Below the pieces are notes generated by a model. That model had not been told where the DNA came from. It ran no database searches and saw only the letters and a list, made by a program, of their open reading frames with translations. Below, in pieces: positions 38,229-41,034 of a stretch of DNA of 64,000 nt. Where the stretch lies: NCBI GenBank assembly GCA_009823395.1, contig CM020515.1:9787989-9851988 (forward strand). The letters run 5' to 3'. The stretch comes from Thamnaconus septentrionalis (Eukaryota > Chordata > Actinopteri > Tetraodontiformes > Monacanthidae). Positions within the stretch are counted from its first letter, which is position 1, and each line of letters begins with the position of its first letter. Position numbers and translations under genes: made by a program.

Positions 38229-41034
38229 CTATAGGATTGTGCAACGTCTCTGCGTGTTTTTCTTGCTCTTCTTGTTGCTGCGGTTGGTCTCCTTGTATCT
38301 TCTGATCTCGCGCACTAGCGAATAGAAAGCCTCCTCCACCCCCTGCCAGAGAGAAGAACAAGCGCAGTGAAAAAAAACCACATCAAACCAAAACGCTGAT
38401 TAAATGCAGTGATGAAAAGCCGTTTGTCCGAACTAGGTTGGCGCTGCGCTTTCAGTGGAGACCCTATGCCAAAGGTGTCAAACTCTGGCCCATGGGCCAT
38501 ATTTGGTCTGCAAGGCAAATACAAAATCGCTACTAGAGAGAGCTGGCCCGCCAGTGTGATGCAACCAGGCCCCCCAGAGTCCAAGATGGCAGCCCATTCA
38601 TTTCAGTGAAGTTGCTCACTGCCAGTCTGGTATCCAGTTCTTATGATACATTCATGGATACAATACATGTACCACTAATACTACAAATCCCAGAATGCTT
38701 TGCTGGTATTTTGGCGTGTCAATCAGAAGAGGACGTTCATTGAAGGAAATTATTTTATTTTCAAATTTATTATTAGCCCGTTACCGTTGAAATTGAAATC
38801 AGAAGGCTGCGAATAAAAATAGAGGTATATAATTTTTATTTACATTTTTTAAATTAGTTTTTTTTTTATTTAAAATTTGATTTTGCGTGTGTGTAATATT
38901 AAGTTATTTATTATTGTTTACTTGCTTACTAGCTTTACTTGTTCCATATTCAGGTTGAAGCAAAACTCGTTTGAGTCCATTTAAAAAGGTTCACTGCTGT
39001 ATCTGGAGGAAGATTTTTTTCCCAATAAATATCAATGTTGGCCTGCAACTTTGTCCAAGTTTTAAATTGAGTTTGACACCCTCGCCCTATGACTTTTCAG
39101 AGGTTTTCACACACGCACTCGGCTGACTCACCTGTCTCGTTTTGGCCGAGGTCTCGACGAACGGCACCCCGTAGCTCCGCGCCAGCTCTTGCGCCTGCCG
39201 CGTCTCCACTGTGCGGGTGCTCAGGTCGCTCTTGTTGCCCACCAGCACCATGGGAACGCTGTCGCTGTCCTTCACCCTGTTGATCTGCTCCCTGCGACAA
39301 GTGTCATGGAGAAAACCATGTGAAATATGGAGCAAAGGGTGTCTGTCTGTCGATGAAGGACCGGATCTTAGACCCCACAATGAAACCTTTATCCATCCAT
39401 CTATGTTGGCTCGCATGCTATGAAGCCAGAATTGGGAAGTACCAAAGTACAAATACTTTGTTATGGTACTGAAGTAGATTTTTCAGGTATCTAGTTTACT
39501 TGAGTATTTCTTAAAATCTTTAAATCATACAAATTCTATTAAATCTAATTCACTTGTGGAGCTATTTGAACTTTGCTGTTGTATAGTTTAATGTAAAAGT
39601 GGATTATATTTTAGAGTATGTATAAAACAACAAATTATTGTGATCAAAACTGTTCTTAAAAACATTAAAAAAAATTTTTTTTTTTTTTTTTACACAAATG
39701 TCTGTACTTTCACTTCAGTACAGAATGCGAATACTTCTGCCACCTCCGCATGGAGCCCAGTGTACCTGTAGAGGTGGACGTCCTCAAAGGACTTGGTGTT
39801 ATTGATGGCAAACACACAGAGGAAGCCCTCTCCCGTCCTCATGTACTGGTCCCTCATGGCGCTGTACTCCTCCTGACCTGCCGTGTCCAGGATGTCCAGC
39901 AGGCAGGTCTCTCCATCGATCACCACCTGCTTTCTGTACGAGTCCTGTGAGCACGGCAGCGACGAAGAAAAAAAAAGGACCAAGGATTGCATCACGTCAG
40001 TTCCCACAGCAGTTGGCAGCTGCGTCTTGCAGCAACAAGACCAGGATGACTCACGTGTCATTTGAGTGCTGAACTTGCAGAAACCTGATTTTTTTTTTTC
40101 CACCTCCCTCAAGCATAAGCTTTAAAAATCATATCATTAACAGACTTGGTGTGCAGGACACAGGGATTTACAGAGCAACCAGTCCAGGATCTTACGTAAC
40201 AGAGTGAGGTGCAGTTGAGATTACAAGACAGCGTGGCTTTGCGTTGAGAATCAAGATGTTTCAAAGAAAGTTTATCCCCTTCATGAGTTCTGCATTTGTA
40301 CTCATTATTTTCAATTTTCACTTTTTACCGTTAACAAAGTGAAATGTATTTTTGCACCCTGGTGTTCCTTCAAATCTGCTCTCATCATGCTGCCCAGAGT
40401 TTCTGTATAATTTGAACAAAAATGTGCTGTACAAACACATCTGCCCTTCCCTGCATTCCTGTTTGTTTTTCAATGTTATACTTCACTTCATATGTTTAAC
40501 TGAATTGCAAAAGGTTATCACAACTGCAGAAGTTTCCATAATATGAACCACTGCGGCAAATCAGTCTCATAGCAATATTCTTCACATAAACCAGACGGAA
40601 CTTTGGTCGTAACATGTCAAATGGAAAAAAAAAAACTTGTAACAAAGTTTTAACGAACTCTTCATTCTGAGGTAGAAAAAAAACTATTACTTGAGACACT
40701 TCCGTTATCTCCCACACGTTTCTTTCATTTAAGTTCAGCAGGAATTCAACCTGTATCTTTGTTTCCCTGCAACATTTTTGAAGACTTTCATGTTGTCCAT
40801 TGGTTGCATATTCAATCAATATTTCAATTTCAGTTCAAATCATCGTAATACTGTGAATAACTTTGCGCAGACGTCTCCTCCACACATGCTACACATTCCA
40901 AGTTTGACGGTTGCATTTCTCACCTCAATCGTTGGATCGTACTCATCGACGAAGTGGTTCTGGATGAGCTGGATGGTGAGAGCGCTCTTGCCCACACCTC
41001 CTGCGCCGACCACCACGAGCTTGTACTCCGTCAT
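38229..41034 (-). CDS. Classical Ras GTPase, extra paralogue (4 coding exons)
   Basis: Small GTPase of the HRas/KRas/NRas type, expected at the inner plasma membrane upstream of Raf/PI3K signalling. Exons: 40924-41034, 39766-39944, 39132-39291, 38229-38342, total 187 aa, with the same exon phases as other RAS genes. P-loop GAGGVGKS (10-17), effector loop [28 protein letters not shown] (57-71), ETSAK (143-147) are intact, with G12, G13 and Q61 unchanged. The nucleotide motif reads NKSD, so residue 118 is Ser, not Cys. The C-terminus ends [15 protein letters not shown]: basic, one Cys, CAAX ending in Leu. A 5' UTR exon probably ends at 41302. It is not clearly orthologous to H-, K- or N-Ras. 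Certain as a Ras; paralogue identity is inferred from synteny. Confidence 0.96.
38470..39084. mobile_element. hAT-type element with GTGTCAAACTC ends, ras intron 3
   Basis: Ends CAAAGGTGTCAAACTC and GAGTTTGACACCCTCG are inverted repeats of the common hAT/Charlie-type terminus. It is flanked by CCCTATGC (38462-38469) and CCCTATGA (39085-39092), 7 of 8 identical. The interior includes a GGCCATATTTGG...CTGGCCCG phrase typical of such elements and no transposase frame. Confidence 0.8.

What the first reader, a model, noticed from the sequence alone, without database searches (positions are those of the whole stretch)
38229..41034. A fourth classical Ras gene in the 19q13.33-type block
The predicted protein is a full classical Ras (intact P-loop, effector and switch II), but its flanks are gys1, pold1, slc17a7 and slc6a16. 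In humans GYS2 lies near KRAS (12p12), SLC6A17 near NRAS (1p13) and SLC17A6 on 11p with HRAS. The 19q block holds GYS1, SLC17A7 and SLC6A16 but no H/K/N-type RAS. The simplest reading is that this is the fourth copy from the two vertebrate genome duplications, lost in mammals and kept in fish. This is inference from synteny and family knowledge; a fish gene of this kind may already be catalogued as a KRas-like entry.
Basis: partly seen in the sequence, partly recalled or inferred. Interest (0 to 1): 0.75.

Follow-up and report, generated by a model that had tools for sequence, protein, structure and literature searches.

The report
Fish copy of fourth Ras gene, KRASBL
This is an intact fish copy of a fourth Ras gene that a 2023 preprint named KRASBL and reported missing from mammals and birds; the fish versions have a few features of their own.

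Summary
Window 38229-41034 (minus strand) encodes an intact 187-aa classical Ras in four exons, with GT-AG introns in phases 0, 2, 0. Flanking genes include a muscle-type glycogen synthase, DNA polymerase delta, a VGLUT-type SLC17 and an SLC6 transporter. In my tree the window protein sits in a KRASBL group with elephant shark, Polypterus, amphibian and turtle proteins (88/93). Pairing with zebrafish KRAS4B (p-AU 0.0016) or teleost HRAS (6e-5) is rejected. The parent gene is unresolved: the preprint's KRAS origin is neither shown nor rejected. Three teleost features differ from the preprint or are not mentioned in its main text: Ser118 instead of Cys in 21 of 21 teleost proteins, a missing K/R-E/D-K/R motif in 21 of 21, and no Ser/Thr near the CaaX box in 7 of 19. 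Synteny in gar and shark and this genome's other ras genes were not tested; the genome search did not complete.

The parts
40924..41034 (-). coding exon 1, residues 1-37 (P-loop, start of effector loop)
   Evidence: spliced model reproduces the 187-aa protein, donor GT
39766..39944 (-). coding exon 2 (rest of effector loop, switch II)
   Evidence: AG acceptor, GT donor
39132..39291 (-). coding exon 3 (NKSD guanine-binding motif with Ser118, SAK motif)
38229..38342 (-). coding exon 4 (end of G domain, polybasic hypervariable region, CaaX = CTIL, stop)
27810..35307 (+). neighbour: DNA polymerase delta catalytic subunit (pold1), approximate bounds
   Evidence: outer bounds by recall of the human protein's ends
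15116..22322 (-). neighbour: glycogen synthase, muscle type (gys1), approximate bounds, model joined by eye
45299..49404 (-). neighbour: vesicular glutamate transporter (read as slc17a7), approximate bounds, model joined by eye
   Evidence: choice of paralogue from recall
57420..63574 (-). neighbour: SLC6 transporter; public fish records mostly name it B(0)AT2; approximate bounds, model joined by eye

Best explanation
The gene is the teleost orthologue of KRASBL, the fourth classical Ras of jawed vertebrates, left from the early vertebrate genome duplications and, by the preprint, lost in mammals and birds. It most likely works as an ordinary Ras switch: loaded with GTP by exchange factors, signalling to RAF-type effectors through the unchanged switch regions, and switched off by GAPs (inferred from sequence identity). 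It is probably held at the plasma membrane by a polybasic tail plus a geranylgeranyl lipid, because its CaaX box CTIL ends in Leu (inferred from the rule in PMC9882654). Its tail has no second cysteine for palmitate (seen in the sequence). Having Ser at 118, it should not respond to redox activation through that residue (inferred from human KRAS C118S work, PMC4406447, abstract).
For: Intact exons and phases 0, 2, 0, as given for vertebrate RAS genes. Switch regions and G12/G13/Q61 as in classical Ras. The 12 KRASBL rows are one group at 88/93, 85/83 without KRAS4A; the window lies with teleosts at 100/99 and with Polypterus at 95/86. Holding teleost KRASBL together with zebrafish KRAS4B is rejected, p-AU 0.0016, and with three teleost HRAS, p-AU 6e-5. 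The CaaX ends in Leu in 19 of 19 teleost and 8 of 8 non-teleost KRASBL rows with an intact C-terminus (I picked these rows partly by their tails, so this is partly circular). PMC9882654 describes the same gene and its loss.
Against: The tail motif K/R-E/D-K/R that PMC9882654 reports in all KRASBL is absent here: KET. With exons 1-3 alone the group is weak, 68/88. Teleost KRASBL held together with all KRAS rows is not rejected, p-AU 0.065. G-domain identity is slightly higher to HRAS (90.3-91.5%) than to KRAS4B (87.9-89.7%), and the best trees lean to KRASBL with HRAS and NRAS (81/81 with KRAS4A; 73/83), against the KRAS origin in the preprint. Support for the KRASBL group itself is below the program's own bar (95 and 80). 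No expression or biochemical evidence, and no synteny outside the window.
Confidence: 0.92

Rival explanations
1. A teleost-specific (third-round) duplicate of kras, hras or nras that moved beside gys1.
For: Close sequence; public records give the names KRas, HRas-like and KRas-like. Teleost KRASBL with all KRAS rows is not rejected, p-AU 0.065.
Against: Proteins from elephant shark, Polypterus, amphibians and turtles group with it. AU tests reject pairing with zebrafish KRAS4B (p 0.0016) and with teleost HRAS (p 6e-5). Pairing with a teleost NRAS was not tested, as none was in the set.
Confidence: 0.04
2. Same gene, but its sister is the HRAS/NRAS line (or it branched before both) rather than KRAS; its polybasic, Leu-ending tail is simply kept from the invertebrate Ras. 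This concerns the parent only and does not compete with the best explanation on the gene's identity.
For: Best trees put KRASBL with HRAS and NRAS (81/81, together with the KRAS4A rows; 73/83). Asp107 as in HRAS and the outgroups, not Glu107 as in KRAS. Amphioxus and acorn worm Ras tails are also polybasic and end in Leu.
Against: Support is low. KRASBL+KRAS is not rejected: p-AU 0.399 without KRAS4A, 0.069 with it, 0.326 on exons 1-3. KRASBL+HRAS+NRAS without KRAS4A is itself 8.6 log units worse (p-AU 0.096). The preprint's last-exon DNA tree groups KRAS4B, KRASBL and invertebrate sequences.
Confidence: 0.35

Closest known systems
KRASBL (PMC9882654, Garcia-Espana and Philips, 2023 preprint)
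   Same: Classical Ras, four coding exons with phases 0, 2, 0, polybasic tail, Leu-ending CaaX; groups with elephant shark, Polypterus, amphibian and turtle rows in the tree
   Different: Teleost form has KET or KES in place of K/R-E/D-K/R, Ser118 in place of Cys118, and a Ser/Thr near the CaaX box that 7 of 19 teleost rows lack
KRAS4B
   Same: Polybasic tail with one prenylated cysteine and no palmitoylation cysteine; best solved-structure match
   Different: KRAS4B CaaX ends in Met (farnesyl type), with Cys118 and Glu107; 87.9-89.7% identity to the window over 165 residues
HRAS / NRAS
   Same: 90.3-91.5% (HRAS) and 89.1-90.3% (NRAS) identity to the window over 165 residues
   Different: Tails with extra cysteines (palmitoylated, per PMC9882654); separate groups, NRAS 98/94 and HRAS 87/82

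Membership tests
KRASBL | oncoprotein switch signature EYDPTIEDSYRK and [14 protein letters not shown] | tested here: met
   signature
KRASBL | four coding exons, introns in phases 0, 2, 0 | tested here: met
   definition
KRASBL | CaaX ending in Leu or Phe (geranylgeranylation type) | tested here: met
   CTIL; the lipid itself is inferred
KRASBL | polybasic domain of at least four basic residues before the CaaX box | tested here: met
   [11 protein letters not shown]
[quoted passage not shown]
   Thr in the window; but 7 of 19 teleost rows with an intact C-terminus lack Ser/Thr there
KRASBL | neutralised basic motif K/R-E/D-K/R (reported in all KRASBL by PMC9882654; taken here as a reported trait, not as what defines the family) | tested here: not met
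   KET in the window; KET or KES in 21 of 21 teleost rows; KEK in 9 of 9 non-teleost rows after P0002 was set aside. Membership is claimed by descent, from the tree
KRASBL | groups with KRASBL of sharks, bichirs and tetrapods to the exclusion of K/H/NRAS | tested here: met
   88/93, and, 85/83, both below the program's bar of 95 and 80; 68/88 with exons 1-3
KRASBL | absent from mammals and birds | tested here: inconclusive
   49 of 139 fetched Ras rows end in C..L or C..F and none of these bears a bird or mammal name, but each search listed only its best 120 of thousands
fourth 2R copy in the 19q13.33-type block | same gene neighbours at the locus in gar and shark | not testable with these tools
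   no other vertebrate locus was read; the one genome search tried (own genome) was unanswered 12 times
fourth 2R copy in the 19q13.33-type block | window flanks are 19q13.33-type genes | tested here: inconclusive
   DNA polymerase delta and muscle-type glycogen synthase clear; SLC17A7 and ASPDH by recall plus weak or paralogue matches; SLC6 neighbour mostly named B(0)AT2 in public records; human positions recalled
teleost-specific duplicate of kras or hras | pairs with teleost KRAS4B or HRAS in the tree | tested here: not met
   p-AU 0.0016 with zebrafish KRAS4B, 6e-5 with three teleost HRAS

The most novel reading that the evidence does not exclude
KRASBL is the vertebrate Ras that kept the invertebrate-style polybasic, geranylgeranylated anchor, and in the teleost stem it was reshaped into a stably membrane-bound Ras without the Cys118 redox switch and with altered charge control of its tail. 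Teleosts, about half of all vertebrate species (recalled), would then carry a natural C118S Ras.
Probability: 0.3. Interest if true: 0.45.

Novelty: already known. Interest (0 to 1): 0.25.

Why it matters
A fourth Ras in many jawed vertebrates, but reported lost in mammals, bears on why humans need three, and on whether fish models of Ras disease have a hidden backup gene. The gene is already in print. What may be new is that teleosts carry a natural version of the C118S change studied in human KRAS, which could be used to test what that residue does in a living animal.

Tried and rejected
The journal version of the preprint, looked up by a recalled DOI, is not held. A search for the zebrafish gene name gave 0 papers. 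Wider literature searches were seen only as capped listings: 20 of 800 papers, 2 of 2, 10 of 14,731, 6 of 8, 8 of 38. Of these, PMC6170504 was opened (only an author-name match), as were PMC4406447 (abstract and section list) and PMC11251195 (passages). The preprint's synteny figure (Suppl. Fig. 7) could not be read, as no supplement look-ups were allowed; I saw its legend only.

Rejected: pairing with zebrafish KRAS4B or teleost HRAS, as a teleost-specific duplicate would. A pseudogene: reading frame and splice sites are intact. Rows dropped: P0020 (Scleropages) and P0106 (Pachyramphus) were left out of the trees because they did not line up from residue 1 after my trim. P0002 (sturgeon) was listed among 10 non-teleost KRASBL rows but set aside afterwards, because it reads I93 and K101 and looks like another Ras or a chimera; the count of 9 is. 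KRAS4A rows were left out, where the outgroup was also not one side of a branch and the amphioxus row was flagged as long.

Limits of the claim on teleost features: inside PMC9882654 the words C118, cys118, teleost and zebrafish have 0 hits in the main text; its supplements were not read, and no literature search for Ser118 in fish Ras was made.

Full report
What is there. The minus strand of 38229-41034 holds a complete Ras gene. A search of splice borders within 3 bases of a first guess found one model with GT-AG at every intron that gives the 187-aa protein: exons 40924-41034, 39766-39944, 39132-39291 and 38229-38342, phases 0, 2, 0 (raw frames). The switch signatures and G12, G13 and Q61 are those of classical Ras. 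The best solved-structure match is KRAS isoform 2B, E = 2.9e-104.

What it is. Protein searches with the window protein and with the elephant shark relative list close relatives named GTPase KRas, KRas-like and HRas-like, and in one cichlid Zgc:55558. They come from many teleosts and also from elephant shark (Callorhinchus milii), Polypterus, salamander, caecilian, a frog and turtles. Each search lists only its best 120 of thousands of matches, so absence from birds and mammals was not tested. Of the 139 Ras proteins fetched, 49 end in C..L or C..F; 27 of these are the rows I class as KRASBL, and the other 22 are unnamed or invertebrate; none bears a bird or mammal name (names).

Tree. Of the 139 proteins, 36 were chosen; with the window that makes 37, and 2 were dropped after trimming, leaving 35 rows. 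With full-length proteins the 12 KRASBL rows are one group, 88/93; the window lies with teleosts (100/99) and then Polypterus (95/86). With exons 1-3 only, the group is weak, 68/88, and 17 of 27 inner branches are open. Without the KRAS4A rows (31 rows) the group has 85/83; holding teleost KRASBL with zebrafish KRAS4B costs 20.5 log units (p-AU 0.0016) and with three teleost HRAS 37.3 (p-AU 6e-5). Holding teleost KRASBL with all KRAS is not rejected (p 0.065), nor is all KRASBL with KRAS (p 0.399; 0.069 with KRAS4A; 0.326). KRASBL with HRAS and NRAS is in the best tree (73/83), but, where KRAS4A joins them (81/81), the grouping without KRAS4A is 8.6 log units worse (p 0.096). So pairing with the teleost KRAS4B and HRAS at hand is excluded, a teleost NRAS was not tested, and the sister is open.

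Already known. The preprint PMC9882654 (abstract, sections 9, 18 and 22, and passages from others) names this gene KRASBL. [quoted passage not shown] My result agrees on the gene, its exon phases and its tail. It does not confirm the KRAS origin. The polybasic, Leu-ending tail is also found in amphioxus and acorn worm Ras, so it may be ancestral and is no proof of a KRAS origin.

What differs in teleosts. I classed 21 of the 139 proteins as teleost KRASBL and 10 as non-teleost, of which P0002 was later set aside. Residue 118 is Ser in 21 of 21 teleost rows and in the window, and Cys in 9 of 9 non-teleost rows (also in P0002). In the other 108 rows it is Cys in 96; the 12 others (Val, Ile, Ala) are unnamed or invertebrate. 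The motif K/R-E/D-K/R is KET or KES in 21 of 21 teleost rows and KEK in 9 of 9 non-teleost rows. [quoted passage not shown] PMC9882654 states both tail features for all KRASBL; its main text does not mention teleosts or Cys118. Residue 128, a main ubiquitination site in KRAS and NRAS and Arg in HRAS (PMC11251195, passages), is Arg in the window and mixed in KRASBL (K 6, R 5, Q 1 of 12). The rows are database cluster representatives, some oddly predicted, so they are not independent species counts. In human cells KRAS C118S lowers GTP loading and EGF signalling (PMC4406447, abstract); that this carries over to the fish protein is inference.

Neighbours. From low to high coordinates: mitochondrial EF-Tu type; Fes1 domain, read as HSPBP1; YhhN domain, TMEM86 type; a weak aspartate dehydrogenase match, E = 0.062 (also below the Pfam cut-off); glycogen synthase, best match the muscle form at 1337 bits, with no chain named as the liver form in the list; DNA polymerase delta; the Ras gene; a vesicular glutamate transporter, best match VGLUT2, with VGLUT1 not in the list; and an SLC6 transporter mostly named B(0)AT2 in public records. 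Human chromosome positions, and the reading of these as GYS1, SLC17A7, ASPDH and HSPBP1, are recalled. The 19q-type block is therefore likely but was not tested against other genomes.

Verdict. The teleost changes are the only part that may be new.

Noticed in passing
window 38462-39091: Intron 3 of the Ras gene holds a stretch of about 620 bases with imperfect inverted ends (21 nt, 81%; an exact 12-nt core at 38474-38485 and 39069-39080), bounded by CCCTATG at 38462 and 39085; it looks like a short DNA-transposon insert. Eight of 100 shuffles gave two or more matches to the core with up to one mismatch, so this is only suggestive.
   Followed up: partly
window 57420-63574: The SLC6 protein is 95% identical over its whole length to one from the filefish Nelusetta ayraudi (family by recall); the next row is 83% over 98%, and a few partial alignments reach 84-89%. 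The window probably comes from a filefish relative.
   Followed up: partly
window 36580-36993: A 138-codon open stretch on the + strand between pold1 and the Ras gene, with no assigned identity.
   Followed up: no
window 2668-3198 and 6114-9025: Mitochondrial EF-Tu type, Fes1 and YhhN genes lie upstream. In human, by recall, TUFM is on chromosome 16 while HSPBP1 and TMEM86B are on 19q13.42, so this fish block mixes regions.
   Followed up: no
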